A stretch of DNA of 64,000 bases from Niabella yanshanensis. Lineage in GTDB: Bacteria; Bacteroidota; Bacteroidia; Chitinophagales; Chitinophagaceae. Position 1 is the stretch's first letter, and each line of letters opens with the position of its first letter. The DNA is taken from NCBI RefSeq assembly GCF_034424215.1, contig NZ_CP139960.1:4030001-4094000 (forward strand), read 5' to 3'. Made by a program: the position numbers and the translations under genes. Shown in pieces: positions 27,959-43,415 of this stretch. The notes beneath the pieces are model-generated. The model was not told the DNA's origin. It was given only the letters and a program-made list of their open reading frames with translations, and made no database searches.

Positions 27959-29089
27959 ATGCTTAAAATAGCCTCTCTTGTTCCCTATAAAATTGTTCCT
28001 GCTGTAACCGGTGGGGAAAAAGGGATTTTCTATTTCCTGAAATATGTTGCGCAGCACACTGAGGTAACCGCTTTCTCGGTAACTGAAAATGCAGGGACTG
28101 TAGAAGGAATCAACTTTGTAGATGTCTTAGGCAGCACGCGCAGGAAAAGCCGTTATGCCGATTTTTCAGTCTTTCGCAAAATAAAAGAGGCCTGTCGCAG
28201 ACGGGATATAAAACACATTATTGTGGAGCATCCGTATTACGCATGGCTGGGTGTAGCTTTAAAGAAATGGGGAGGACTGAAGCTCATCATTCATTCCCAT
28301 AATATTGAAGCCACCAGGTTTAAAAGCGTAAAAAAATGGTGGTGGCCCATTCTGCATCAATATGAAAAGTTTGCGCACCGGCAGGCAGATTTTAACTTCT
28401 TTATAACTGAAGAGGATAAAGACTATGCCATAAAAACCTATCAGCTTCGTGCTGATAAATGTGCAGTCATTACTTATGGGATCGAAAATTTGGCAGCGCC
28501 CTCTTTCGAAGAAAAGCAACAAAGTAAGAAGCTGGTTTGTGAGGAGCTGGAGCTGCCGGAAGCTACCAAACTTATTCTTTTTAATGGAACGCTTGATTAT
28601 GCCCCGAACCGGGATGGGCTGGATAAGATCCTGAAGGAAATCAATCCGCTGCTTCAGCAACAGGCAGGGCTTTCTTATAAAATTATTATCTGCGGATTAA
28701 GATTGCCAGCGGAGTATAATGAGCTTAGAGGCTACGGGGATCAGCATATTATTTATAAAGGCTTTGTTGAAGATATCGGTATTTACTTTAAAGCAGCAGA
28801 TGTTTTCATCAACCCAATTACAGATGGCGGGGGTATTAAGACAAAGTTGGTGGAAGCGTTGGGTGCCAACACTCCGGCGGTTTCTTTTAAAGCAGGGGCT
28901 TATGGTGTCCCCGTCAGTATTACCGGTGATCACCTTTCGGTGGTGGCAGATGATGATTACCAGGGGTTTGCCAATGCAATATCAACACAGCTTATCAAAC
29001 CGGCGGGTAATATGTCAGCTTCTTTTTACGATCATTTCGGCTGGGATGCTATCGCGAAAAAGGTTACAGGAATTATCAAAAGTCTTTAA
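27959..29089 (+). CDS. Family-4-like glycosyltransferase
   Basis: This 376-residue GT-B-fold enzyme would transfer a sugar from a nucleotide-sugar donor onto a glycan intermediate. The N-terminal half includes HIIVEHPYYAWLGVALKKWGG and LIIHSHNIEATRF. The C-terminal donor half has LILFNGTLDYAPNRDGL, the KIIICGLRLP strand and the acidic motif around DVFINPITDGGGIKTKLVEAL, with the glutamate of the retaining GT4/GT1 EX7E-like site. There is no signal peptide. It is followed after 170 bases by an epimerase gene on the same strand. The acceptor and sugar are unknown. Confidence 0.88.
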   Translation: MLKIASLVPYKIVPAVTGGEKGIFYFLKYVAQHTEVTAFSVTENAGTVEGINFVDVLGSTRRKSRYADFSVFRKIKEACRRRDIKHIIVEHPYYAWLGVALKKWGGLKLIIHSHNIEATRFKSVKKWWWPILHQYEKFAHRQADFNFFITEEDKDYAIKTYQLRADKCAVITYGIENLAAPSFEEKQQSKKLVCEELELPEATKLILFNGTLDYAPNRDGLDKILKEINPLLQQQAGLSYKIIICGLRLPAEYNELRGYGDQHIIYKGFVEDIGIYFKAADVFINPITDGGGIKTKLVEALGANTPAVSFKAGAYGVPVSITGDHLSVVADDDYQGFANAISTQLIKPAGNMSASFYDHFGWDAIAKKVTGIIKSL

Positions 29090-31141: not shown

Positions 31142-32098
31142 TTACCAGTTGCCTTTCCGGATCAGTTTTCTATTCATAAAAAAGTGAATCATCATTGCAA
31201 ATTTTGAGAAGAACCCCACGTGCAGTAAACCTTTGGGTAAACGGGACTGTGTTTTTATCATGGCGTTTAAAATTGGAGGCACTTCGCCGTCATAACCGTA
31301 TTTCTGTATATCTTTTATACATTTTATATTAAAGTTTCTTATAAAACGCCAGTTATAATCATACACAAGAATGTTGGTGAGTTTTTCAACTCCCATTTTA
31401 GAAATAAAGTGAAAGTGTTCAGGTATTTCTATCTTACCTACATTTTTAGTATATGAAGTTACTTGTGAGCTGCTCATATATACTTTTATCAGCGGCTGAT
31501 TAATGTAAATAAGTGCGTCTGTCTCTAGCCTTCTGCGATAGGCATCTATATCGACCAGCCATTTAAGCTTTGTATCATAGATATGTTGGCCATCATTTTT
31601 ATACATCGTAACACTAGGGGGGCCAATGAAATTTTTAGCCAGTAGGATTGCCGGTTCCTTTTCCGCCTGTAATAAACGGAATTTTTCGGGATAAATAGTT
31701 TCCTCTTTTCTCCCGTCTTCAAAAACTTTTTTATAAGCAGAGAAGATAAAGCCCTTGTCACTCTTTTTTGCACAATCAGCAAATTGTTGCAGCGAGGTCG
31801 GCTCCCCAAACCAATCATCGTCGTGCATCAATTTTATCCAAGAGCCTTTAGCCAGAGAAATAGCTTTGTTCCAGTTGGCGGGTGTGCCTAATGCTATTTC
31901 GTTCTTAAAATAGAAGAGGGGCAAAGTAGACGCATGTTTTTCGCAAAGCAACGCCACCCCATTATCCGGACTGTCATCGGTTACGATCACCTCAAAATCC
32001 TTGTATTCCTGTAAAACAATAGAATGAAAAAGTCTTTCCAGGAATTGAATTCTTTGATAAGCGGGGATACATATAGAAATAAGGGGTGCGGCGGCCAT
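31142..32098 (-). CDS. Family-2 glycosyltransferase
   Basis: This 318-residue GT-A enzyme begins APLISICIPAYQRIQFLERL, followed by VIVTDDSPDNG and the metal-binding DDD-type motif in KLMHDDDWFGE near residue 95. The middle has the acceptor region and a conserved WLVDIDAYRR. There are no membrane segments apart from a mildly hydrophobic C-terminus. It ends 3 bases after the convergent plus-strand glycosyltransferase, and its start overlaps the stop of the upstream methyltransferase by one base, so these two minus-strand genes are coupled. Confidence 0.9.
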   Translation of the reverse strand: MAAAPLISICIPAYQRIQFLERLFHSIVLQEYKDFEVIVTDDSPDNGVALLCEKHASTLPLFYFKNEIALGTPANWNKAISLAKGSWIKLMHDDDWFGEPTSLQQFADCAKKSDKGFIFSAYKKVFEDGRKEETIYPEKFRLLQAEKEPAILLAKNFIGPPSVTMYKNDGQHIYDTKLKWLVDIDAYRRRLETDALIYINQPLIKVYMSSSQVTSYTKNVGKIEIPEHFHFISKMGVEKLTNILVYDYNWRFIRNFNIKCIKDIQKYGYDGEVPPILNAMIKTQSRLPKGLLHVGFFSKFAMMIHFFMNRKLIRKGNW

Positions 32099-32853
32099 TA
32101 CGGTTTAATTGCTAACGTAAAAAGGTTGATGTCGTGAATCTTTTTTTGTAATACAGTACGAAAGCCCGCGAAATTCAGTGCTTGTGTAATCAGGTCGAAT
32201 GAAAACACATGATGATGAATACAACGGTTTTGGAAATTATCTTTTGTGCGAATAATAAGTTCTTCCTTACTCTTTACACCACTATCAAGTGCAATAATGT
32301 GGTGTTGAAGAACCTCCTCAAAATGTGTGTTGTCATGTTCAGAAACATCGATTTTGTAGTCGTTAAGCAGATGATCAAATGTTGTATAATCGCGATCCTT
32401 GTCAAACGTGACCTCTTTATTAGGCAGTATCAGGCACAGGCTACCTCCGGGCTTTAATACCTCATTCCACCTTTTCAATGCTTTCAGTGGGTTGGATATA
32501 TGCTCCAGGCTATGACTGGAAAGAATAAAGTCATAAGTGTTGTTAACTATTCCTTCAAGAGCGGTAGCTTCTGTTATAAATTGATTTCCTATTTCATAGC
32601 CTTTCAGGTATTCATAGGTTTTACCGGGCTTTATTGTGCCTTCCCAAACTGTTTGTGCATTGTAATTTACACCGTCCACACGGTTCGCATACAAATACGC
32701 AGGGTAGTAGCTAGTTTGTTTAAATATTGGACTGGGACCACCTATTTCAAGCCCTGTCTTATTTTTTAATAACTTCGCCAAAGCTATTGTAGGCTTCTTT
32801 TGCGGGTTTTTGATAGAGCTGATTTTCGTGATAATTGAATCCTTCAGTTTCAT
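32098..32853 (-). CDS. SAM-dependent methyltransferase in the polysaccharide cluster
   Basis: The 251-residue class-I methyltransferase shows the glycine motif region GLEIGGPSPIFKQ, then DFILSSHSLEHISNPLKALK (Methyltransf_11 style), WNEVLKPGGSLCLILPN and a C-terminal strand with FAGFRTVLQKKIHDINLFTLA. It lacks an N-terminal signal. Its stop overlaps the start of the following glycosyltransferase. In this setting it probably methylates a sugar or glycan end group, but that is inferred from context only. Confidence 0.85.
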   Translation of the reverse strand: MKLKDSIITKISSIKNPQKKPTIALAKLLKNKTGLEIGGPSPIFKQTSYYPAYLYANRVDGVNYNAQTVWEGTIKPGKTYEYLKGYEIGNQFITEATALEGIVNNTYDFILSSHSLEHISNPLKALKRWNEVLKPGGSLCLILPNKEVTFDKDRDYTTFDHLLNDYKIDVSEHDNTHFEEVLQHHIIALDSGVKSKEELIIRTKDNFQNRCIHHHVFSFDLITQALNFAGFRTVLQKKIHDINLFTLAIKP

Positions 32854-32879
32854 AGGATAACAAAATAAAACTTTTTACC

Positions 32880-33728
32880 TTGTTAGAAAAAGTATTTGGG
32901 GTAGTAATTTTATACAATCCAACTAAAGAGGTATTGGACAATATCTCGTCATACAGGAAAGCGCTCGACCATCTGGCCATCATAGACAATAGCGAGCGCC
33001 TACATGCTGTTCAGTTTGAGGAAAATGAGCAAGTGACTTTTTTCGCAGATGGAGAAAACAGGGGCATATCCGAAAGATTAAATCAAGCTGCGGCATTTGC
33101 GAAGTCCCGGGGCGCAAAATGGTTACTTACAATGGACCAGGATTCTTTTTTTTCTGAGTATATATTTGATCGTTACCTGAACTGCGTTGCTGTTTTTTCT
33201 GGCAGGAATGAAGTAGCTATGTTTGGGGTTGAATTTGAATCAACGGAACAGCGGGAAGACTGTTTTTCGGAGGATACAGATAATCTCATTACATCTGGTA
33301 GCCTGCTGAACCTTGACCTCTTTGAGAAAATTGGTGAGTTTGATATAAACCTGTTTATTGATGAGGTGGACTTTGATTATTGTATACGTTCAATAAGGAG
33401 CGGCCTCCGGATAGTGCGGTTCAAAAATATTTGTATGCATCACTCTCTGGGAATCGTTCATCAACGGCGTTCCTTCAAGACTTTTAAAATTACTTCCCGC
33501 ACTCTACATCCGCCTTTAAGGCTATATTACATGGTAAGGAACTACCTCTACCTGCGTGATAAATATGGAGCAGAATTCCCGGCAGCGTTTGGAATAAAAA
33601 GAACGGATCTTTTAAACCGCATAAAAAATCGATTACTATATGGAAATGCGCGCCTGGAAACGTTCCGATATCTACTAAAAGCCTACAGGCACTATAGGTC
33701 TGCTAAAATGGGTAAGTACAAGTATTAA
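32880..33728 (+). CDS. Family-2 glycosyltransferase, rhamnosyltransferase-like
   Basis: The frame opens with a TTG at 32880. No ATG lies nearby, and GVVILYNPTKEVLDNI is the proper family start, so TTG is the likely initiator. The 282-residue enzyme has ENRGISERLNQAAAFAKSRG, WLLTMDQDSFF with the DxD, ITSGSLLNLDLFEKIGEFD and DEVDFDYCIRS, matching rhamnosyltransferase-like GT2 enzymes. It ends with a 4-base tail-to-tail overlap with the minus-strand neighbour. A decayed paralogue lies at about 36690-37248. Confidence 0.88.
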   Translation: MLEKVFGVVILYNPTKEVLDNISSYRKALDHLAIIDNSERLHAVQFEENEQVTFFADGENRGISERLNQAAAFAKSRGAKWLLTMDQDSFFSEYIFDRYLNCVAVFSGRNEVAMFGVEFESTEQREDCFSEDTDNLITSGSLLNLDLFEKIGEFDINLFIDEVDFDYCIRSIRSGLRIVRFKNICMHHSLGIVHQRRSFKTFKITSRTLHPPLRLYYMVRNYLYLRDKYGAEFPAAFGIKRTDLLNRIKNRLLYGNARLETFRYLLKAYRHYRSAKMGKYKY

Positions 33729-34732
33729 TGAGTTTTTAAAATACTTCTGATTTCGTCAAGTTGATCGAGCTCTAATCTTGTAACTATGATTTTGGACATT
33801 TTATCCTGGCGATCCCTTGCTCTGCTTTTTTCAATTATCCTTGCTCCCAACAGAGGCAAGGAGGCAATAAACCGCCCTGCCATTTTCTTCACGGAAGGTT
33901 TCATGTTGTGGTTACGGTCAATACTATCTACCAGGTTATTTATGCCTTGCCCTAAAGTGTGCATAATTTTTTTCGGGTCTTCCGTCGGCATATATCGTTG
34001 GATAGCTGTTAAAAGGTGTCCCAGGAAGTCCTCTATCTCTGACCTGAATCTGGGTTCCCTAAACATTTTATTAATGGTTAGGGCTGTTTTGTCGTCGGAA
34101 TCTTCTGCGTATTCTCTTACCTGAAATAAAACCGGCAGTTCTTTATACTTACCGGCAGCCAGGGGCACAATAGAGGCGTTATACTCATTTAAAAATAAAT
34201 TTCGGATACTTTCGGATGCATTCTTATAGGCGTCCTTTAACGTGGTAGTGCGATGAACGGCATACAGGAATGATTTGTAGTTGGCGAGCAGCGCGCCGAT
34301 ACGGTCGAGACCACTCTGGTTTTCGTAAGAATATGCTTTGGGAGGGTAAAGCGGGTAAAAGTCGACTTCCTTTTTCTTCACGACTTCCTTTTTTTTATAA
34401 CATATAGACTTTCCCTGTACAGAAGCATAACCCGGATTGCTATTCAGAAAACTGATACACGCCTCAAGTGCCTGGGGAATGATAAAGTCATCATCTGCAC
34501 ACAAAATGACATATTCTGTTTTTACCACCTGTAAAATTATTTCGATCTTTTGGGTATAATTAATGCCGGGCGTATAAATGTGCCTCCATGAAGCGGGGAT
34601 AGCGTCCGAAGGGTGTTTTTGCGTGGAGCTGTCAGCTAATATGACAGATGCTTCAATATGCCGGTAATACTCCACCAGGCGGCGAATATTTTGATGGCGG
34701 TTGTGTAGTATAATAACAAGGGTTACATCCAT
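33725..34732 (-). CDS. TIGR00180-type glycosyltransferase
   Basis: The 335-residue enzyme begins VTLVIILHNRHQNIRRLVEYY and has the donor site EYVILCADDDFIIPQAL near residue 80, followed by FLNSNPGYASVQGKSICY. This is the pattern of a GT2-like group that carries a long helical C-terminal half (about 200-335). The C-terminal half is rich in charged residues and ends without a membrane anchor. It sits 7 bases downstream of a methyltransferase gene on the same strand, so both are likely to act on one glycan. Confidence 0.82.
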   Translation of the reverse strand: MDVTLVIILHNRHQNIRRLVEYYRHIEASVILADSSTQKHPSDAIPASWRHIYTPGINYTQKIEIILQVVKTEYVILCADDDFIIPQALEACISFLNSNPGYASVQGKSICYKKKEVVKKKEVDFYPLYPPKAYSYENQSGLDRIGALLANYKSFLYAVHRTTTLKDAYKNASESIRNLFLNEYNASIVPLAAGKYKELPVLFQVREYAEDSDDKTALTINKMFREPRFRSEIEDFLGHLLTAIQRYMPTEDPKKIMHTLGQGINNLVDSIDRNHNMKPSVKKMAGRFIASLPLLGARIIEKSRARDRQDKMSKIIVTRLELDQLDEIRSILKTH

Positions 34733-34739
34733 CAGGCAA

Positions 34740-35696
34740 TTACTTTCTTATATATAAAGCTACTGAATCACTTTCGCCCTTTTGATTGAGCGTCTTAATT
34801 TCATTTTCGAACCTTTCGATATCTGAAGGGGTGAATATACTACCTGCCGGATTTTGAAAGTAACTTCTTTCATCGTTAACGTTGCTGATGCCTTTTGAAT
34901 ACTGTTCGCTACCCATTATTGAAAAGGCTTCGGCATCGAATACTGTTTTGTATATGGAGAGATTATTTTTTTCGATAATCCCCGTGATGCTCTTTAAGCT
35001 GTGAATGAACAAGTGTCTCGGAGCATCAAGCGATACCACATTGCCGCCATATTTAACCATCAAGGGTTTGCTTACAATCGGGATCCTGATAAGTATTCTG
35101 CCGCCTTCTTTTAAAAGGGTAGCAGCTTTTTGTATCACTGCATCCTGCCGGTCCATATGCTCCAGGCTATGGTGCATCATTATAACGTCGTAAGTACTGT
35201 CTGTTTGGAATATATCTCTTTTAAGAAGTTTCAGGCTATTATTATAAATAAGATCTTTCTCTAAAAAAGGATCAATACCCGTAAGATTATTAAATCCCAG
35301 GCGATACATTCTTTTCAGTAACTGGCCATTTCCGCATCCAATGTCCAAAACGCTTTCATTCCGGTTGTGCAAATACAGTTCCTTCAGCCAGGTGTAAAAG
35401 CCGGAGGGTTTAAACTTTAACGCCAGTAAACCGCCCAATAGCCTGTTTTTATTAAATGCATAGTAATCAAAGTGGACACTCCTTATCCGGCTTTTTTTAA
35501 GTGGCACTTCTGCTACCGTATAAGAGTAATAGTCTGTAGGATAGTATTTGCCGAGGTCTGAAGGTACTTCGGCTATCTGGATACAGCCGCAGCTGGTGCA
35601 TTCAAAATAATCGAACTCGTCCTTCAATCCATACATCATTTCTTTTAAAACGATTTTTTTATTATCCGATGTATTAAAACAAATGCCGCATTTCAT
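34740..35696 (-). CDS. Methyltransferase with N-terminal zinc-ribbon-like cysteines
   Basis: The 318-residue protein starts MKCGICFNTSD and has a second cysteine pair in FECTSCGCIQ, so residues 3-45 look like a small metal-binding knuckle, as in some sugar C-methyltransferases. The SAM-binding core follows: SVLDIGCGNGQLLKRMYRLG, then YDVIMMHHSLEHMDRQDAV and LLKEGGRILIRIPI. It opens the minus-strand part of the polysaccharide cluster, just before the glycosyltransferase. The presence of the cysteine knuckle is seen; the sugar-methyl role is inferred. Confidence 0.85.
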   Translation of the reverse strand: MKCGICFNTSDNKKIVLKEMMYGLKDEFDYFECTSCGCIQIAEVPSDLGKYYPTDYYSYTVAEVPLKKSRIRSVHFDYYAFNKNRLLGGLLALKFKPSGFYTWLKELYLHNRNESVLDIGCGNGQLLKRMYRLGFNNLTGIDPFLEKDLIYNNSLKLLKRDIFQTDSTYDVIMMHHSLEHMDRQDAVIQKAATLLKEGGRILIRIPIVSKPLMVKYGGNVVSLDAPRHLFIHSLKSITGIIEKNNLSIYKTVFDAEAFSIMGSEQYSKGISNVNDERSYFQNPAGSIFTPSDIERFENEIKTLNQKGESDSVALYIRK

Positions 35697-35733: not shown

Positions 35734-36483
35734 TCAGCGTATCGTTGGGATTTCAGAAATAAATTTTGCCATTCCCTTACGCTTGTCCTCATCCAGCTCG
35801 TAACTCAGGTTGACCGAGAAATATTTCTTTAGATCGTAAACACCATTATGATGTTCCGCAGCAATTTCATCGATATGTTGCAGGCCGTAAGCGTTGGCTT
35901 CGTCGAATTTCAGGATAAAATCATCGGGTAGTTTTTTTGTACTCACCCAGGCCGCAAAAACAAAAGGCAGACCTGTCGCCATTTTCCATTCTCCGGCCAA
36001 ATCATAAATATATTTGAAGTTAGGACGTTGCGCCAGCGCCCTGTCACCTATAATAACAGCAGCAGTGTCTCCCTTGATACCATTGATATAGGATTCATCT
36101 TTTGCGTCAATGAACTCCACTTCAATTTTCCAGTGATGTTTAACCAGCCATTTTAATAGGTTAACCGAAGAGCAGCTTTGATAATCAAGGCGTATTTTTT
36201 TTATTTGATCAATAGGCTGCTCGCTGAAAAGTGCTACGGATGCTACATCTCCAACGGCGCCAATGCAATAGTGGCCATTGATATAATATTTGGGGAGCTG
36301 TGGAACTACTGCCACAGGAACTAATCCCAGGTCGATCGCCCCGGTTTTGAGCTTTTCTGCCAGGGATGCGGGATACGCTTCAATCAATTCAATTTCATTT
36401 TTTATAGGAAGCCTTTGTAAGCCATAAATGAGGGGGCGCGTATTTAAATAGCTTACAATTCCGACTCTAATATTCTGTTCCAA
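35734..36483 (-). CDS. mqnA: Chorismate dehydratase (futalosine pathway of menaquinone synthesis)
   Basis: MqnA removes water from chorismate in the first step of the futalosine pathway. The 249-residue protein has a periplasmic-binding-like fold without a signal: VGIVSYLNTRPLIYGLQRL, LAEKLKTGAIDLGLVPVAV, the DYQSCSSVNLLKWLVKHHW segment and IIGDRALAQRP. The length is normal. It is divergent from the original purB. A second copy of its first 78 codons lies at 40951-41185 (see findings). This copy is the intact one. Confidence 0.95.
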   Translation of the reverse strand: MEQNIRVGIVSYLNTRPLIYGLQRLPIKNEIELIEAYPASLAEKLKTGAIDLGLVPVAVVPQLPKYYINGHYCIGAVGDVASVALFSEQPIDQIKKIRLDYQSCSSVNLLKWLVKHHWKIEVEFIDAKDESYINGIKGDTAAVIIGDRALAQRPNFKYIYDLAGEWKMATGLPFVFAAWVSTKKLPDDFILKFDEANAYGLQHIDEIAAEHHNGVYDLKKYFSVNLSYELDEDKRKGMAKFISEIPTIR

Positions 36484-36514
36484 TCTTTATTCCTTTATTT
36501 TTGCGCGAAATTAA

Positions 36515-36590
36515 CAGGTTTCAGGTTTAATGTTCCCGGTTCAACGTTAAACTTTGAACTTTTAAACCCGGAATATAAACTTTAAATATG
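36515..36590 (+). repeat. 7-bp-period array in the mqnA-purB promoter region (left copy)
   Basis: CAGGTTT, CAGGTTT, AATGTTC, CCGGTTC, AACGTTA, AACTTTG, AACTTTT, AAACCCG, GAATATA, AACTTTA can be read in unbroken 7-base steps. The unit is degenerate, but the register and the A/T-GTT pattern recur. The same array occurs in the right repeat at 41217-41291 with one base lost. Confidence 0.6.
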
Positions 36591-36594
36591 GAGC

Positions 36595-36659
36595 ATGTCT
36601 TCAACCGCTATCTCGCCTATTGATGGCGGCTACAGTAAATGTTCAAAGCCTGCAGGAAT
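36595..36659 (+). pseudogene. purB: purB 5' fragment (left copy)
   Basis: From the ATG at 36595 the frame reads MSSTAISPIDGGYSK and matches MSLTAISPIDGRYSK of intact purB. A net loss of two bases then shifts the frame to a stop at 36661. Similarity ends abruptly after GCAGGAAT at 36659, where unrelated sequence begins. The conserved arginine is replaced by glycine. Confidence 0.88.
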
Positions 36660-36689
36660 CTGATAAGTCTTTATAACATCCTGCCTGGT

Positions 36690-37248
36690 GTAGTTAGATA
36701 CTGTAACAATTACGAGTCGCTTTAACAGCTGTGAACAGAAAGAAAAAGTAGGGGTATTGGGTGCAGAATATGAAAAAAGATCAATCAATATCTCCATGAA
36801 ATTGAGGAAAATAAGCTCCCTGATTACGTCCGGAAGCCTGGTTAACCTCAATATCCTCTAAAAATTGGGTGGTTTTGACGTAAAGCTATTTATCGATTTT
36901 GTGGACCAGGAGTATAGCTTTAAGGCTTTCTATCAAAACTACCTGGCGCTGAAATTTAATAATGTTTTTTTGAATCATTCGCTTGAAAAGCGTAAGCATG
37001 CATTCGTCGTTAAAATCGGCCAGGCGCACATCAAGAACATTGCATGCACTGGTTCGTTTGTACTATATGGTAAGAAACTTTTTTTCCTTAAAAAATATAC
37101 AGAAATGTATTTTCTGAAACTATCCAGGGCATGCGTTCTTCTAAAATTAATCGTGTAAAAAAACTTGCTGTATGGGAAGCGGCTAATCAACTACCTGTTT
37201 CTTGCCTACAGGCATTATAAAACCGGAAAAAGGGAAAACTTTGATTAA
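36690..37248 (+). pseudogene. Decayed family-2 glycosyltransferase
   Basis: The frame through 36748 reads VGVLGAEYEKRS, ISSLITSGSLVNLNIL, stop (36859-36861), KLGGFDVKLFIDFVDQEYSF, and later a second in-frame stop (37156-37158), then KNLLYGKRLINYLFLAYRHY to TAA at 37246. It parallels the glycosyltransferase at 32880-33728 (VAMFGVEFES, LITSGSLLNLDLFEKIGEFD, RLLYGNARLETF, KAYRHYRSAK) along its C-terminal two thirds. The N-terminal third is missing, being replaced by the purB fragment. The upstream limit near 36690 is approximate. It is a clear pseudogene with two stops. Confidence 0.85.
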
Positions 37249-37582
37249 AAACTTACAAGAACAATCCTTAAATACTCAAAACAAATTTGAAATAAATATT
37301 TATTTAACTTATATTTAACTCTTTTTTCTTTTTTTTAATTGGAAAGGAATATATTTTTAACGGAACATTAGGTTTTGTTACCTCGCTACCATCATTTAAA
37401 ATGAAAACCCAAAAGAAGAGCAAAAATGCCATATACTTTCGCTTAGCAAGGAACTCTTTCAATTGATAATTAGGAATCTAAGATGAAGGTTTTTAAATCA
37501 TTGTTTAAAAATATTCTTCATTTTTTCATAAACAGTCAGTCTATTTCAAGTTAATCATTGTTAAACATAAAAAAAAAACACC
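37249..37582. other. A/T-rich gap without a clear gene
   Basis: The 330 bases between the dead glycosyltransferase and the secreted fibre-like protein are strongly A/T-rich. The only frame of note is a 21-codon basic peptide at 37401-37466, which I do not accept as a gene. The run of A just before 37583 may be part of the next gene's translation start region. Confidence 0.5.
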
Positions 37583-38344
37583 ATGTTATTGAGAACCTCA
37601 TTGATGCTTATTGTAATGTGCATAATTGGTAATGTCATCTATGCGCAAAATACATTTCCTGCAACAGGAAATGTTGGCATTGGAACTACTTCTCCAACCA
37701 CGCCATTGACGATATTTAAGAGTAATTCAAGTATTGACCCTTCAAATTCACATATATTATTAACTAATAGTGGCTCTGGGCAGCAAAACTTAATTTCGTC
37801 AACAATAGGGGGTACTATTAAAGGTAAATGGCGAAATGATTATTTTGGGAATATCTATTATGTTTCTTTTGGAAGTAATCATATTTTTATGACAGGCGGC
37901 GACTATGGGGTTGGTATAGCACCAATGGTCATAAATAGCTCTGGGATTCGGATTAAAACTGAGACTCTTCCATCGGGCTATCAATTGGCTGTTGGAGGTA
38001 AGATAATAGCGGAGGAGCTAAAGCTCAAACTGCAATCAACCGGGTGGCCTGATTATGTATTCCAGCCATCATACAATTTGCCTAGTTTAAAAGAAATTGA
38101 AGCGTTTATAAAAAAGAATCAACATTTGCCTGATGTACCATCTGCGAAAACAGTAGCGACCGAAGGCATAGAGTTGGGTAAGAATCAAGCAATACTGCTA
38201 AAAAAAATAGAGGAATTGACCCTTTACATCATTGAACAGGACAAAAAAATTGAGAAACAGAATATGATACTAGAAAAGTTAGTAGGAAAAGAAATGTCTA
38301 CTCTAAGCAAGAAAAAAACTAGCCTATTTACCGATAGAAAATAG
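37583..38344 (+). CDS. Secreted fibre-like protein with conserved C-terminal coiled region
   Basis: The 253-residue protein has a signal peptide (residues 1-22, ending IYAQ), then NTFPATGNVGIGTTSPTTPL, the start of many Bacteroidota secreted proteins with phage-tail-fibre-like repeats. The middle is glycine- and serine-rich. The C-terminal part has YQLAVGGKIIAEELKLKLQS, the YVFQPSYNLPSLKEIEAFI segment, HLPDVPSAKTVATEGIELG and an amphipathic helix with KKIEELTLYIIEQDKKIEKQ. That last part is a trimerising coiled coil similar to tail-fibre C-termini. It is short for the group, so it may be trimmed. It lies inside the 4.7-kb inserted segment. Confidence 0.75.
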   Translation: MLLRTSLMLIVMCIIGNVIYAQNTFPATGNVGIGTTSPTTPLTIFKSNSSIDPSNSHILLTNSGSGQQNLISSTIGGTIKGKWRNDYFGNIYYVSFGSNHIFMTGGDYGVGIAPMVINSSGIRIKTETLPSGYQLAVGGKIIAEELKLKLQSTGWPDYVFQPSYNLPSLKEIEAFIKKNQHLPDVPSAKTVATEGIELGKNQAILLKKIEELTLYIIEQDKKIEKQNMILEKLVGKEMSTLSKKKTSLFTDRK

Positions 38345-38360
38345 CATTTTTCTATCGGTA
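38329..38360 (+). terminator. Stem-loop at the end of the fibre-like gene
   Basis: A perfect 13-bp inverted repeat TACCGATAGAAAA/TTTTCTATCGGTA surrounds a 6-base loop that holds the stop codon TAG. There is no strong T-run after it, so it may stabilise the transcript as well as end it. Confidence 0.6.
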
Positions 38361-38660
38361 AACGCAAATTTTTAGAAATGAATGTGATTTTAATATTATT
38401 GTTTGAATCGTCATTTCTATATACTAATTACACTAATATTTTTTCTTTAAATAGATCTAGTTAAAATATCTCTCTAAGAAAATCACCCTTACAATACTTT
38501 TTATTACTTGAAAATGTTTTTCTTGATGCTAATATAAGTAACGCTACTTACTCAGTAATAAAACACTCTCTACATAAATTTTAATAATGAGTATTATGTT
38601 ATAGAAGCCATGACTTATTACGATATATAATGTCGATAACATTGTAAAATACCCACACAT
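38361..38660. other. A/T-rich intergenic region before the S8 protease
   Basis: About 300 bases hold no convincing open frame, repeat or hairpin. The base composition is clearly more A/T-rich than the flanking housekeeping genes, as in the rest of the inserted segment. Confidence 0.5.
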
Positions 38661-40565
38661 ATGGAAAAGAGATTTAGAAAGCTAATATTTTGTCTGACAC
38701 TGTCGCTTGTTTTTTGTTTTGGTTGCGCCAAAACAAAAGACCTTGTCGGCGATGGAGGGGGCACGGCGGCACGCTCGGTTATTGCTGCTGATGACTACTA
38801 TTGGTATAAAGGAAACAAAATTCCACTTACAAAAAATACGAAGAAAAAATATATACTTTTTGAAGCAGCTAACGAAGCAAAAGTGAACACCGCGTTGTCC
38901 GAAAAAGGAGCCCGCATTGTGGAAAAGGCGAAAAATTTGAATCTATCAAAAGCGACAAAAGTAGCCGACGACGAAAAATCCGACACACTAAGATTTATGA
39001 TTGTAGAAGTTTCCACAAAACTATCTACCACTGATAATAAGATAATATATGAAGCTCCTTTTTTTATTACCAGTTCTGGAGATGAGATAGGTCTGTCTCA
39101 GCTTTTTTATGTTAGGCTTAAATCAACAGATGGGTATTCCAAATTGGTGGAGTTGGCCAGGTCCAATAATGTAGAGATATTGGGAAACAATGAATATGTA
39201 AAGGAGCGTTATACATTATCATGTAGTAATGGGTCTTCTGGTAATGCATTGGAGATGGCTAACAAGTTTTATGAAAGCGGTTATTTTGCATCTGCTCAGC
39301 CTGACTTGATGGGGAGATTTAAAAGTGCCAGTGTAAATGACACCTATTTTGCTAACCAGTGGAATTTAAATAACACTGGTCAATATGGAGGGACATCTGG
39401 TGTTGATATTAAGTATTCTGATGCGCGTTCAATAACTCAGGGTTCTAGCAGCATCGTAGTTGCTGTTATAGATGATGGGGTTGAGGTAACCCATCCTGAT
39501 TTGAATATTTATAATAGCGGCTTTGATACAGAAAATGGCTCTACACCCAACATAGTACGGGGGGAACATGGCACCGCCTGTGCTGGTATAACAGGAGCCA
39601 TTGCGAATAATAATCAGGGGATTGCAGGTGTAGCGCCCAACTGCCCTATAATGCCAATAAGTATCCAGTATGGAGTGATTATGCCGGATACCTATACAAA
39701 ATATGCAAGCGGATACTATTACGCTGCAAACAATGGAGCATCCGTTATATCAAACTCTTGGGCGGGCCCCGAAATTTACAATCAAGACCTGGATGATGCA
39801 ATACAATATTGCCTGACAAGTGGACGTGGCGGTTTAGGATGTGTAGTAGTTTTTGCAGCTGGCAACAGTAATAGTTCCGTGCAGTACCCGGCAAACTCTA
39901 ATAGTGATATTATCGTTGTTGGTGCAAGTTCTCCTTGTGGCGAAAGGAAAAGTCCCGGCTCGTGCGATGGAGAAACTGGTTGGGGTAGTTGTTATGGATC
40001 GCAGTTAGACGTGGTTGCCCCCGGTGTGTTGATACCTACTACCGATCTTGCTGGGACAAATGGATATAATCCAAGCATACCAATACATTTGTGGAGTGGG
40101 GGAAGTAAAATCTCGACAGACTACAGCAATCAAGATTACACTGTATGGTTTAATGGTACTTCTGCTGCTACACCTCATGTGGCAGGTGTAGCAGCACTAA
40201 TCCTCTCCGTAAATTCAAGTCTGACCCAAAAGCAGGTTGCCGAAATTATTGAGCAAACAGCACAAAAAACTGGTAGTTATACCTATACTACTACGGTAGG
40301 AAGACCCAATGGTACCTGGCATGAGCAAATGGGTTATGGGCTGCTAAATGCATTTGCTGCGGTTACCGGCGCATCGGGCTGCACTACTGTAAATTATATT
40401 AACCAAACAGTGAATACTAATACGAATGTTGCAGGCTGTATTATCAATGCACAAAATGTAACAGTTAATAGTGGCGCGAAACTTACTTTTAATGCTCTTG
40501 ACTATATATTGATTAGTCCGGGCTTTGAAGTAAAAAGCGGAGCAGAGTTTAGAGCAGGTTTTTGA
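38661..40565 (+). CDS. S8 subtilisin-family lipoprotein protease
   Basis: The 634-residue serine protease has a lipoprotein signal ending in FCFGC (acylated Cys22). A propeptide-like region (about 40-220) precedes the catalytic domain: Asp271 in VAVIDDGVEVTHPDL, His303 in GEHGTACAGITGA, oxyanion Asn402 in FAAGNSNSS, and Ser501 in FNGTSAATPHVAGVAAL. The last 55 residues (VNYINQTV, NVTVNSGAKLTF, ILISPGFEVKSGAEF) form a short beta-repeat module common at the C-terminus of Bacteroidota secreted proteins. It is probably anchored on the surface. It sits inside the inserted segment and may be its main cargo. Confidence 0.93.
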   Translation: MEKRFRKLIFCLTLSLVFCFGCAKTKDLVGDGGGTAARSVIAADDYYWYKGNKIPLTKNTKKKYILFEAANEAKVNTALSEKGARIVEKAKNLNLSKATKVADDEKSDTLRFMIVEVSTKLSTTDNKIIYEAPFFITSSGDEIGLSQLFYVRLKSTDGYSKLVELARSNNVEILGNNEYVKERYTLSCSNGSSGNALEMANKFYESGYFASAQPDLMGRFKSASVNDTYFANQWNLNNTGQYGGTSGVDIKYSDARSITQGSSSIVVAVIDDGVEVTHPDLNIYNSGFDTENGSTPNIVRGEHGTACAGITGAIANNNQGIAGVAPNCPIMPISIQYGVIMPDTYTKYASGYYYAANNGASVISNSWAGPEIYNQDLDDAIQYCLTSGRGGLGCVVVFAAGNSNSSVQYPANSNSDIIVVGASSPCGERKSPGSCDGETGWGSCYGSQLDVVAPGVLIPTTDLAGTNGYNPSIPIHLWSGGSKISTDYSNQDYTVWFNGTSAATPHVAGVAALILSVNSSLTQKQVAEIIEQTAQKTGSYTYTTTVGRPNGTWHEQMGYGLLNAFAAVTGASGCTTVNYINQTVNTNTNVAGCIINAQNVTVNSGAKLTFNALDYILISPGFEVKSGAEFRAGF

Positions 40566-40659
40566 CACAATTAGTTTCTTTTAATTTTTTCTTTATTTCT
40601 AATATCGGCCAATACAGACTGATTACTGTATAGCGGCTATGTAGTAAGGTTAAAGATGA

Positions 40660-40694
40660 AAGGGCTATGCTCTTACTCCAGAGCATAGCCCTTT
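40660..40694 (+). terminator. Terminator of the S8 protease gene
   Basis: A perfect 13-bp stem AAGGGCTATGCTC/GAGCATAGCCCTT with an 8-base loop lies about 95 bases beyond the protease stop. Confidence 0.8.
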
Positions 40695-40950
40695 ACTTCT
40701 GGGCCAACATATTTAATGGATGGATGGCCAGATTCCTTTAAACCTCGTGTGACCGGGCACAAAGGCTTTTTTGCAGCTTTATTGCACAGGGCATCCTTTG
40801 GTTTCTATAAATCTTTATGTTGTTAGTGAAAGAGAATTAGCCCTCCGCCATTTTGATGTATTACAAGTGAACAAATGATCTGGTGTTGTTCGATCGGGTG
40901 TATCCACCAATGCTATTAAGTTAAGCATTTTGCGGTCACGGTGGATCGAG
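40695..40950. other. Gap between the protease terminator and the mqnA fragment
   Basis: No gene is recognised. The sequence is less A/T-rich than the region around the fibre gene. It joins the mqnA fragment abruptly at 40950/40951. A short antisense frame reading VDTPDRTTPDHLF could be a remnant of something, but I cannot name it. Confidence 0.45.
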
Positions 40951-41185
40951 CTCCAACCGCACCAATGCAATAATTGCCATTAATATAATGTTGTGGAAGC
41001 TGCGGAATCACTGCCACGGGAACTAATCCCAGGTCGATGGCTCCGGTTTTTAGCTTTTCAGCCAGGGAGGCGGGATATGCTTCGATCAATTCAATTTCAT
41101 CTTTTATAGGGAGCCTTTGCAAGCCATAAATGAGGGGGCGCGTATTTAAATAGCTTACAATTCCGACTCTAATCTTCTGTTCCAA
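40916..41185 (-). pseudogene. mqnA: mqnA 5' fragment (right copy)
   Basis: The first 78 codons are homologous to intact mqnA (only a handful of amino-acid changes, such as N4K, N29D and V60I, while silent changes are more numerous). After CIGAVG the sequence is unrelated and ends at 40916. The active-site residues of the rest are lost, so this is a dead fragment. It is divergent from the intact purB. Confidence 0.92.
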
Positions 41186-41362
41186 TCTTTATTCCTTTAT
41201 TTTTGCGCGAAATTAACAGGTTTCAGGTTTAATGTTCCCGGTTCTACGTTAAACTTTGAACTTTAAACCCGGAATATAAACTTTAAATACGGAGCATGTC
41301 TTTAACAGCTATCTCGCCTATTGATGGCCGCTACAGTAAACAGGTTCAAAGCCTGCAGGAAT
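40951..41362. repeat. Right direct repeat (mqnA 5' part, intergenic region, purB 5' part)
   Basis: This is the partner of 36249-36659. The intergenic middle is nearly identical, while the coding ends differ by mostly silent substitutions. It marks the right boundary of the 4.7-kb inserted segment and includes the functional purB start. Confidence 0.92.
41198..41205 (+). promoter_or_regulatory. Candidate -7 box for purB
   Basis: TATTTTTG fits the TAnnTTTG consensus and is preserved in both copies of the repeat (left copy at 36496-36503). It lies about 90 bases before the purB ATG, next to the 7-bp-period array. Confidence 0.4.
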
Positions 41363-42633
41363 ATTTCAGTGAATATGCATTAATTAAGTATCGCGTTATA
41401 ATTGAAATTGAATACCTGCTGCTATTGGCAGATAAAAAGTTCCTGAAATTGTCTGCCGGTGCTAAAAAGCATTTGCAGGGGTTAAAGGAAAACTTCAGCA
41501 TAGCAAATGCAGAAGCTATTAAAGAAATAGAAAAGACTACTAACCACGATGTTAAGGCGGTAGAGTATTTTCTAAAGACAGAACTGGATAAAACAGATGC
41601 ACAGGAAGCAAAAGAGTGGATCCATTTTGGTTTAACGTCACAAGACGTCAATAATACCGCCATTCCGTTACTGTGGAAGCATAGCCTGGAGTTTGAACTG
41701 CTGCCGGCCTATCTGAACCTGCAAAATCACCTGCATCAACTCGCACAGGATTTTAAAGAAATCCCGATGCTGGCTAAAACCCATGGTCAACCAGCGTCTC
41801 CAACCAGGTTGGGAAAAGAAATAATGGTTTTTGTAGAGCGTCTGGAAAACCAGATCCGCCTGTTCTCCTATATACCGGTTGCCGCTAAATTTGGTGGCGC
41901 CACCGGAAATTTTAACGCACATCATGTAGCCTATCCTAAAACAGACTGGATCAAATTCGGAAATCATTTTGTTGAAGAAGTGTTAGCCCTGCAAAGAATG
42001 CAGTTTACTACGCAAATTGAGCATTATGATAACCTGGCTGCTCATTTCGACTGTATCAAACGCATCAATACTATTTTGCTTGATCTGTGCCGCGACATAT
42101 GGACCTATATCAGCATGGAGTATTTCAAACAAAAAACCAAAGCCGGCGAGGTAGGGTCTTCCGCTATGCCCCATAAAGTAAACCCTATCGACTTTGAGAA
42201 TGCTGAGGGGAATATAGGCGTAGCTAATGCAATGCTGGAGCATCTTTCGGCTAAATTACCGGTTAGCCGTTTGCAGCGTGACCTAACCGATAGCACCGTT
42301 TTACGTAATATTGGTGTACCGGTAGCGCATACTATTATCGCTATCAAAAGCATCGAAAAAGGTTTAGGCAAGCTGGTATTAAACGAATCGGCATTGAAAG
42401 CAGATCTGGATAATAACTGGGCAGTAGTGGCGGAGGCTATTCAAACGATCCTGCGTCGCGAAAAATATCCGAATCCTTACGAAGCATTGAAAGAATTAAC
42501 AAGAGGTAAAGAGGGTATTACGAAGCAGTCGCTGCATAAATTTATTACATCCTTAAAAGTTTCTGCTGAAATTAAGGCTGAGCTGAAAAAAATAACGCCG
42601 CATAATTACACGGGGGTAGTTGCCAAGTACTAG
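41296..42633 (+). CDS. purB: Adenylosuccinate lyase
   Basis: PurB cleaves SAICAR and adenylosuccinate in purine synthesis. The 445-residue protein has the start SLTAISPIDGRYSKQVQSL, then EWIHFGLTSQDVNNTA, LAKTHGQPASPTRLG with the catalytic histidine, and the superfamily signature GSSAMPHKVNPIDFENAEG, which holds the catalytic serine. This is the longer E. coli-like PurB type. It is intact and reads from the right copy of the repeat. It is the original neighbour of an mqnA gene, of which only the fragment remains directly upstream. Confidence 0.97.
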   Translation: MSLTAISPIDGRYSKQVQSLQEYFSEYALIKYRVIIEIEYLLLLADKKFLKLSAGAKKHLQGLKENFSIANAEAIKEIEKTTNHDVKAVEYFLKTELDKTDAQEAKEWIHFGLTSQDVNNTAIPLLWKHSLEFELLPAYLNLQNHLHQLAQDFKEIPMLAKTHGQPASPTRLGKEIMVFVERLENQIRLFSYIPVAAKFGGATGNFNAHHVAYPKTDWIKFGNHFVEEVLALQRMQFTTQIEHYDNLAAHFDCIKRINTILLDLCRDIWTYISMEYFKQKTKAGEVGSSAMPHKVNPIDFENAEGNIGVANAMLEHLSAKLPVSRLQRDLTDSTVLRNIGVPVAHTIIAIKSIEKGLGKLVLNESALKADLDNNWAVVAEAIQTILRREKYPNPYEALKELTRGKEGITKQSLHKFITSLKVSAEIKAELKKITPHNYTGVVAKY

Positions 42634-42686: not shown

Positions 42687-43268
42687 CTAATTACGGAAAA
42701 TATCTTTTAGCTCAAGAGATAATTGCGGAAAAGCCGTGCTGGTGATAATTTGACCTACTAATAAGGGGTCTATAAATTCGTACTTTCCCTCTTTTAAAAA
42801 GTATTGATTAATAGCTTTTGTGTCCAAAATATCACCCGGTATTCCTGCACGCCGTTTTCTTGATATAGATTGGTCTTTTCGTTCATGTCTTTTTTGCAGT
42901 GTAAGGCGATAGTACTTCTATAATCAGGTCAGGCGTGCCAATGCAGCCACGTTCATCAATTTTGGATTCGTCGCAAATGATACCGATATCGGGTTGTACA
43001 ACAGTTGTAATTTCGTAATCGGAAGATTTATTCTTCACCCGCCTTACATCAAAGGGGCAAAAAACATATTGCAATTTTTGCCATCGAAGTAATTTCCAAT
43101 TTTTAGTACCAGATTAGCGGCAATTTTCTGATGCCAGGATGCCGGCGCCGGTGATAAAATAAACAGCTTTCCTTTAATGAGTTCCACCGCTTCTTTCAAA
43201 CGCCAGGTCAAATAATCGGCATAAGTATATTTTTTATTACGGTCTAACTGGGAGATATCCGTTATCAT
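42687..43268 (-). pseudogene. Uma2-family (DUF820) nuclease, broken by frameshifts
   Basis: Uma2 proteins are small PD-(D/E)xK-fold proteins of uncertain role, often in many copies. Here the frame begins MITDISQLDRNKKYTYADYL (ATG complementary to 43266-43268) and runs through LIKGKLFILSPAPASWHQKI to NCNMFFAP. One missing T then shifts it into FDVRRVKNKSS and TVVQPDIGIICDESKIDERG. A second single-base loss in an A run follows PYTAKK, and at least one more shift precedes the recognisable end LVGQIITSTAFPQLSLELKD, with TAG at 42687. With three or so shifts it is not functional as read. Confidence 0.8.
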
Positions 43269-43415
43269 ATCAGCTATTTTCTCAAAAATACAAAATATGT
43301 CGCAGATGTTTGGGGCCTTGAAGTTGATCAAGAGGGTCTTTATCTATAGCAGAGCAGATGAATGTTATCTGGACCTGCTCTTAAGGAAACGCTTTGCATT
43401 AATAACCAAACAGCA

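What the first reader, a model, noticed from the sequence alone, without database searches (positions are those of the whole stretch)
36249..41362. 4.7-kb insertion between mqnA and purB, flanked by 410-bp direct repeats
The order is: intact mqnA, shared promoter region, purB fragment, dead glycosyltransferase, fibre-like protein, S8 protease, mqnA fragment, shared promoter region, intact purB. Each copy of the repeat (36249-36659 and 40951-41362) holds mqnA codons 1-78, the intergenic part and about 20 codons of purB. This is the structure expected from single-crossover (Campbell-type) integration of a circle carrying an mqnA'-purB' piece, or from recombination with incoming DNA of a relative. 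No integrase or transposase is seen. It leaves one intact copy of each essential gene.
Basis: partly seen in the sequence, partly recalled or inferred. Interest (0 to 1): 0.75.

Follow-up and report, generated by a model that had tools for sequence, protein, structure and literature searches.

The report
Displaced sugar-locus scar beside purB
The two repeats around this insert appear to be the shared ends of two versions of one surface-sugar gene region lying side by side in this chromosome, one intact and one decayed, so what looked like foreign cargo is largely the fossil of a gene-region swap between close relatives.

Summary
The repeat is real: 36249-36664 and 40951-41366, about 92% identical. 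In 15 of 16 same-genus genomes mqnA lies within 86-516 bp of purB; none of the 16 shows the fibre or protease there; in one (G006) no mqnA was found. The cargo is not arbitrary. Its edges are remnants of the kind of polysaccharide locus that lies beside mqnA in several congeners: a group-1 glycosyltransferase scrap, a broken family-2 glycosyltransferase, a broken rfbG-like gene and possibly rfbF, collinear with relatives. The unit between the repeats thus reads as a second, decayed allele of [glycosyltransferases - mqnA - purB]; the fibre-like gene and S8 protease look like additions. The two mqnA copies are well diverged (dS 0.59 over codons 22-78) with mostly silent changes in both, against an old in-place duplication. 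A near-identical tract (36419-36600) points to crossover or gene conversion within the repeat. Best explanation: recombination with a relative's DNA, one homologous exchange plus one illegitimate joint (purB codon about 22 to a glycosyltransferase), then decay. Direction of transfer, and linear or circular donor, are unresolved. A known kind of event, well preserved.

The parts
35734..36483 (-). mqnA, intact (allele A)
   Evidence: Pfam VitK2_biosynth 8.3e-49; 249 aa
36249..36664 (.). repeat copy A: mqnA codons 1-78, intergenic, about 22 purB codons
36419..36600 (.). near-identical tract between the copies (crossover or gene-conversion tract)
   Evidence: 0 of about 16 synonymous sites differ in codons 1-21 against 18 of 44 in codons 22-78; intergenic 3 events in 111 bp
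36595..36664 (+). purB' fragment, decayed (Leu3 and Arg12, kept in the 9 relatives aligned, are changed; 2-bp deletion)
   Evidence: alignment, difference list
36657..36710 (-). scrap of a group-1 glycosyltransferase at joint J1 (about 36664)
   Evidence: 56% over 18 aa to G008 gene L036:8295-9413; score 50, shuffle maximum 42 in 500
36721..37230 (+). pseudogene of a family-2 glycosyltransferase, N-terminal part missing, frame changes and stops
   Evidence: 40% over 176 aa to the G008 gene, 28% over 170 aa to own GT at 32880; 0 of 200 shuffles as high; pieces in two frames
37583..38344 (+). fibre-like protein, 253 aa, open; probable addition
   Evidence: match in 9 of 17 genus genomes, this one included; none in the 16 mqnA-purB stretches
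38661..40565 (+). S8 serine protease, 634 aa, Asp/His/Ser motifs present, C-terminal 3-coathanger stack domain; probable addition
   Evidence: Pfam Peptidase_S8 4.5e-43; GCX_COOH 5.2e-9; motifs at 269, 303, 499; top match in another genus genome 42%
40577..40772 (-). pseudogene piece like rfbG (CDP-glucose 4,6-dehydratase; name recalled), residues 17-81, two stops
   Evidence: G001 L035:6100-7182; score 143, shuffle maximum 66 in 500; found again at 40580-40717 by own-genome search
40757..40916 (-). possible collinear scraps of rfbF (glucose-1-phosphate cytidylyltransferase; name recalled)
   Evidence: three weak collinear pieces, E 0.08-3.4 in a 401-bp target; 9 of 500 shuffles as high: inconclusive
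40938..41185 (-). mqnA' fragment (allele B), codons 1 to about 83, evolved like a working gene until recently
   Evidence: 6 changes assigned to it, 1 non-synonymous
40951..41366 (.). repeat copy B
41296..42633 (+). purB, intact
   Evidence: Lyase_1 and ASL_C; 98% aa to G003
31142..35696 (.). the intact polysaccharide haplotype beside mqnA: GT (-), methyltransferase-like (-), GT (+), TIGR00180-type GT (-), methyltransferase (-)
   Evidence: parts of the order shared with G002, G008, G012

Best explanation
The 4.7-kb unit is a displaced, decayed allele of the polysaccharide locus that borders mqnA-purB. Shown: in several congeners the segment between a conserved glycosyltransferase (homologue of 27959-29089) and mqnA holds variable sugar genes, and the unit between the repeats ends in dead pieces of such genes, in order and orientation collinear with relatives. 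Shown: the two mqnA alleles differ mostly at silent sites. Inferred: DNA of a close relative recombined with this chromosome at the mqnA-purB anchor or its neighbourhood, while one end, purB codon about 22, was joined illegitimately to a glycosyltransferase gene of the other allele. Both alleles ended up in tandem: [GTs - methyltransferase - mqnA A - purB'] | [GT' ... rfbG' - mqnA B - purB]. Redundant parts then decayed: purB', GT' and rfbG' by point changes and deletions, and mqnA B by a later deletion running from codon about 83 into the rfbF/rfbG region. A tract over the shared promoter was homogenised by crossover or gene conversion. The fibre-like gene and the S8 protease entered the dead stretch, or were already part of that allele.
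For: In 15 of 16 congeners mqnA lies 86-516 bp from purB without this unit. GT' is closer to the syntenic GTs of G008 (40%, 105 bits) and G012 (35%, 91 bits) than to the genome's own GT at 32880 (28%, 60 bits). rfbG' matches G001, where rfbG-rfbF are the next sugar genes to mqnA, about 590 bp away, in the same orientation; elsewhere in this genome rfbG finds only matches of 25-29% identity. Four wrong-strand controls and two control stretches scored within the shuffles. Codons 22-78: dS 0.59, dN 0.04. Of 6 amino-acid differences, B agrees with at least two of four relatives in 5 and A with one relative in 1. 1 of 6 changes assigned to B and 5 of 14 assigned to A are non-synonymous (4 more undecided, all silent) against 73% expected without selection (P 0.007 and 0.004). 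Sharp step in divergence at 36418 (P 9e-5).
Against: No genome searched holds the donor allele with intact GT...rfbG-mqnA-purB from a near relative. The rfbF scraps are not convincing alone (9 of 500 shuffles). The GT1 scrap is 18 residues. Targets for the shuffle tests were chosen after seeing hits. Polarising third positions with outgroups at dS above 1 is unreliable. purB' offers 66 bp only. Codons 1-21 also show fewer silent differences in B against G012 (6 of 16 sites, against 29.5 of 43), which weakens the tract argument in part. The tract (about 2% divergent) looks younger than the decay of purB', GT' and rfbG', so it may be a later gene conversion and not the founding crossover.
Confidence: 0.72

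Rival explanations
1. Campbell-type integration: a chromosomal fragment of a relative was circularised (joint at about 36664) and entered by one crossover inside the mqnA-purB repeat.
For: The topology is identical; a near-identical tract lies inside the repeat, as a crossover with mismatch repair could leave.
Against: No replication, integrase or plasmid gene found among the ORFs of 60 aa or more scanned in the unit; requires circularisation of a chromosomal piece; purB' seems more decayed than mqnA' although both would be captured pieces of the same age (4 events in 66 bp against 1 damaging change in 234 bp, P 0.009, my own classification).
Confidence: 0.2
2. In-place tandem duplication of the native locus followed by divergence and loss.
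For: One joint (purB codon about 22 to a GT gene) would create GT' and purB' at once (own reasoning on the anatomy).
Against: GT' is only 28% identical to the own GT at 32880 while the mqnA fragments are 72 of 78 residues alike; mqnA dS 0.59 with purifying selection on the fragment; would need later replacement of the whole left allele.
Confidence: 0.06
3. Insertion by a mobile element that makes a 410-bp target duplication, with fibre and S8 as cargo.
For: Direct repeats flank the insert.
Against: No transposase or integrase found; the copies are different alleles; the edges are sugar-gene fossils; the best direct match at the edges of the fibre-S8 block is a 10-bp T-rich word, which 15 of 300 random pairs equal or exceed, and the best inverted one is 8 bp.
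Confidence: 0.02

Closest known systems
Displacement of T6SS effector modules in Vibrio cholerae by proposed homology-facilitated illegitimate recombination (PMC5361080; passages read)
   Same: Incoming module anchored by homology at one side, joined illegitimately at the other; old material shifted downstream and kept.
   Different: Here a polysaccharide allele and its anchor genes; the displaced copy is dead and no immunity role is suggested.
O-antigen locus variation between galF and gnd in Salmonella, with recombinant clusters and gene remnants (PMC3715488; passages read)
   Same: Variable sugar locus between conserved genes, recombination between alleles, remnants left behind.
   Different: The flank is mqnA-purB in a presumed Bacteroidota genome (lineage inferred, not named by any search), and two alleles stand in tandem with the anchor duplicated.
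Campbell-type single-crossover integration (recalled)
   Same: Direct repeats of the homologous segment, one intact copy of each gene.
   Different: The unit reads as an allele of the same locus; no replicon gene found.

Membership tests
Homology-facilitated illegitimate recombination scar | one side joined in homology | tested here: inconclusive
   near-identical tract inside the repeat, but a later gene conversion gives the same picture
Homology-facilitated illegitimate recombination scar | other side joined without homology | tested here: inconclusive
   a joint of purB codon about 22 with a GT scrap exists at about 36664; the parental sequences at the joint are not available
Homology-facilitated illegitimate recombination scar | site without the unit in relatives | tested here: met
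   15 of 16 congeners have mqnA 86-516 bp from purB; in G001 a small other gene lies between them; G006 has no detected mqnA
Polysaccharide-locus exchange | variable sugar genes between conserved flanks | tested here: met
   7 different sets of marker genes in the 8 genomes (G000, G001, G002, G003, G004, G008, G009, G012) whose stretch reached both flanks; G004 and G009 alike. Marker search only
Polysaccharide-locus exchange | remnants of the other allele | tested here: met
   GT' and rfbG'; rfbF' inconclusive
Polysaccharide-locus exchange | a sister genome with the intact other allele | tested here: not met
   none among the 16 congeners held; one genome per species only
Integrative plasmid or element (Campbell) | replication or integration genes | tested here: not met
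   none among the ORFs of the unit scanned with Pfam and PHROGs and NCBIfam (fibre and S8 only)

The most novel reading that the evidence does not exclude
The mqnA-purB junction works as a standing exchange site: new surface-sugar alleles arrive with their own mqnA-purB end, old ones are pushed towards purB, decay there and serve as a landing strip for secreted-protein genes. The 410-bp repeats would still allow the unit to be lost in one step.
Probability: 0.12. Interest if true: 0.6.

Novelty: new member of a known kind. Interest (0 to 1): 0.38.

Why it matters
If right, it shows how a surface-sugar locus can be swapped without mobile-element genes, using housekeeping genes as handles, and it keeps a readable record: two alleles in tandem, a homogenised tract and staged decay. 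It also warns that a stretch flanked by repeats can be an old allele and not a foreign cargo.

Tried and rejected
Target-site duplication by a transposable element: rejected (no transposase found; no convincing terminal repeat around fibre-S8). Simple in-place duplication: rejected on GT' and silent divergence. Origin of the unit through the S8 protease: no close relative found. In 195 family genomes (E at most 1e-20) the top matches are 40-46% identical, with 49% over one shorter stretch; 13 named loci reach at most 45% (a pattern search that reaches close relatives only). Fibre and S8 as one travelling pair: fibre matches in the genus lie at other places than the S8 matches listed; I did not test adjacency in other genera. 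Direction of transfer (which allele is native): not settled; the nearest mqnA usable for dS, G012, is at 1.2-1.6, and G003, the nearest by purB, has a frameshifted mqnA. Recurrence: of 195 family genomes, 2 (this one and G196) show two mqnA matches; G196 was not examined. Limits of the outgroups: G003 and G012 are rated 72% and 83% complete and carry frameshifts; the polarisation used G003, so it was repeated without it: B stays at 1 non-synonymous of 6, A goes from 6 of 17 to 5 of 14, undecided from 1 to 4. Promoter and terminator scans were uninformative: 20 promoter-like sites against 16.9 in shuffles, 0 terminator-like against 3.5.

Papers: PMC5361080 and PMC3715488, passages only; other papers only as search listings with abstract starts. 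The search for mqnA with purB and polysaccharide returned one unrelated listing.

Full report
Observation. The repeat is real: 36249-36659 and 40951-41362 are 92.0% identical over 413 columns, 4.70 kb apart. Gapped comparison carries it to about 36664/41366 with 36 difference columns; the longest identical run is 70 bp, 36473-36542. Each copy holds mqnA codons 1-78, the intergenic part and about 22 purB codons. The genome is one contig of 5.54 Mb rated 99.99% complete, so an assembly artefact is unlikely; reads were not available. An own-genome search with the whole stretch gives, besides itself, only a 36-bp match to its own hairpin at 38327-38362 and a 75-bp match at 75% elsewhere.

Relatives. 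Of 16 same-genus genomes examined, 15 have mqnA beside purB, divergent, with gaps of 86-516 bp; in G006 no mqnA was found (also no match). None of the 16 stretches (6-20 kb) shows the fibre or the protease. The largest gap, in G001, holds a small 23S rRNA intervening-sequence-protein gene, so that junction is interrupted too, by something else.

What the cargo is. In several congeners the side of mqnA away from purB carries sugar genes. In the 8 genomes whose stretch reaches both the homologues of 25378-27867 / 27959-29089 and mqnA (G000, G001, G002, G003, G004, G008, G009, G012) the marker genes between them form 7 different sets (G004 and G009 alike); G001 has rfbF-rfbG about 590 bp from mqnA in mqnA's orientation. 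This is a search with markers, not a full annotation, and in the other congeners the anchors were not reached or not found. The names rfbF and rfbG are recalled; Pfam shows a nucleotidyl transferase and an NAD-dependent epimerase/dehydratase. The stretch between the repeats carries fossils of such genes: GT' at 36721-37230 (+), 40% over 176 residues (105 bits) to the syntenic G008 gene, 35% (91 bits) to that of G012, and 28% over 170 (60 bits) to the genome's own GT at 32880; a scrap of a group-1 glycosyltransferase at 36657-36710 (-); rfbG' at 40577-40772 (-), residues 17-81 of the G001 protein, two stops; and weak collinear pieces of rfbF. With a frameshift-tolerant alignment and dinucleotide shuffles, GT' scored 389 (0 of 200 shuffles as high, maximum 122), rfbG' 143 (0 of 500, maximum 66), the group-1 scrap 50 (0 of 500, maximum 42), rfbF 54 (9 of 500 as high). 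Four wrong-strand controls and two control stretches scored within the shuffles. These targets were chosen after hits in the same data, so the shuffle counts are not corrected for that choice. A search of the whole genome with rfbG finds the fossil again (42%, two stops) and otherwise four matches of 25-29% identity. So the unit reads GT1'(-) - GT'(+) - [fibre, S8] - rfbG'(-) - (rfbF'?) - mqnA'(-) - purB(+): an allele of the locus, in tandem with the intact allele to its left.

Age and selection. mqnA copies A and B differ at 24 of 234 positions, 19 of them third positions. dS is 0.38 over codons 1-78 and 0.59 over codons 22-78; over codons 1-78 it is 1.2 (B) and 1.6 (A) to G012. Without the frameshifted G003, 14 changes fall on A (5 non-synonymous), 6 on B (1 non-synonymous) and 4 are undecided; the expectation without selection is 73% non-synonymous, P 0.004 and 0.007. 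Thus the truncated copy evolved like a working gene until recently. At 5 of 6 amino-acid differences the truncated copy, and not the intact one, agrees with at least two of four relatives, at 4 of them with all four; at the sixth the intact copy agrees with one. In purB', Leu3 and Arg12, kept in the 9 relatives aligned, are changed and 2 bp are lost. The contrast (4 events in 66 bp against 1 damaging change in 234 bp) has P 0.009, with small numbers and my own classification of events.

Mosaic. Divergence steps sharply: 23 of 171 positions in codons 22-78, but 1 in codons 1-21 and 3 events in the 111-bp intergenic part (P 9e-5); 0 of about 16 synonymous sites against 18 of 44 (P 0.0013). B against G012 is uneven in the same sense but less: 6 in codons 1-21, 14 mismatches plus 23 gap columns in the intergenic part, 35 in codons 22-78. 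I read the tract 36419-36600 as homogenised, by the founding crossover or by later gene conversion between the repeats.

Mechanism. Best account: DNA of a near relative recombined at this locus; one joint was homologous, the other (purB codon about 22 to a glycosyltransferase gene, about 36664) was not, so both alleles stayed in tandem. purB', GT' and rfbG' decayed; mqnA B was later cut by a deletion that fuses codon about 83 to the rfbF/rfbG remains. Shown: anatomy, site without the unit in relatives, allele fossils, silent divergence, tract. Inferred: donor, order of events, linear or circular form of the donor DNA. The founding structure is the same for a linear fragment joined at one end and for a circularised fragment, and I cannot tell which allele is native.

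Fibre and protease. The fibre-like ORF has no match in Pfam, NCBIfam or PHROGs at the thresholds used; 8 of the 16 other genus genomes have relatives of it, at other places. The S8 protease has its Asp, His and Ser motifs, a lipoprotein-like N-terminus (own reading) and a 3-coathanger stack domain; its top matches are about 40-46% identical, and it also matches a PHROGs protease family (8e-38). The five small ORFs on the other strand that I scanned in the unit match nothing in Pfam or PHROGs. Whether fibre and S8 came with the displaced allele or entered later is open.

Comparison with the known. The logic, an incoming module anchored at one side that shifts the old one downstream, was proposed for V. 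cholerae T6SS modules (PMC5361080, passages). Variation of sugar loci between conserved flanks, with recombinant clusters and gene remnants, is described for Salmonella O antigens (PMC3715488, passages). The present case is a further member of that kind, at a different flank. No paper on this junction came up in the one search made for it.

Verdict. Observation confirmed; interpretation partly supported: incoming relative DNA likely, a circle not needed, and the cargo misread. Interest moderate.

Noticed in passing
L035:3616-3903 (G001): A 23S rRNA intervening-sequence-protein gene (Pfam 23S_rRNA_IVP) sits between mqnA and purB in another species of the genus: a second, different insertion in the same junction.
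   Followed up: partly
window 40659-40694: A perfect 15-bp stem with a 6-nt loop (own reading) lies inside the rfbG fossil, about 94 bp after the S8 protease stop; it could be a terminator. The terminator scan did not list it.
   Followed up: no
window 38327-38362: A 15-bp stem with a 6-nt loop overlaps the stop codon of the fibre-like gene (own reading; self-match); not listed by the terminator scan.
   Followed up: no
window 42883-43331: A gene of the Uma2 family, broken into two frames, lies just downstream of purB (two partial, below-cutoff Pfam matches).
   Followed up: partly
window 36421-36483: Between B and G012 the first 21 mqnA codons also show fewer silent differences (6 of 16 sites) than codons 22-78 (29.5 of 43); perhaps a regulatory signal.
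   Followed up: no
G196 (family member): The only other genome of 195 with two mqnA matches.
   Followed up: no
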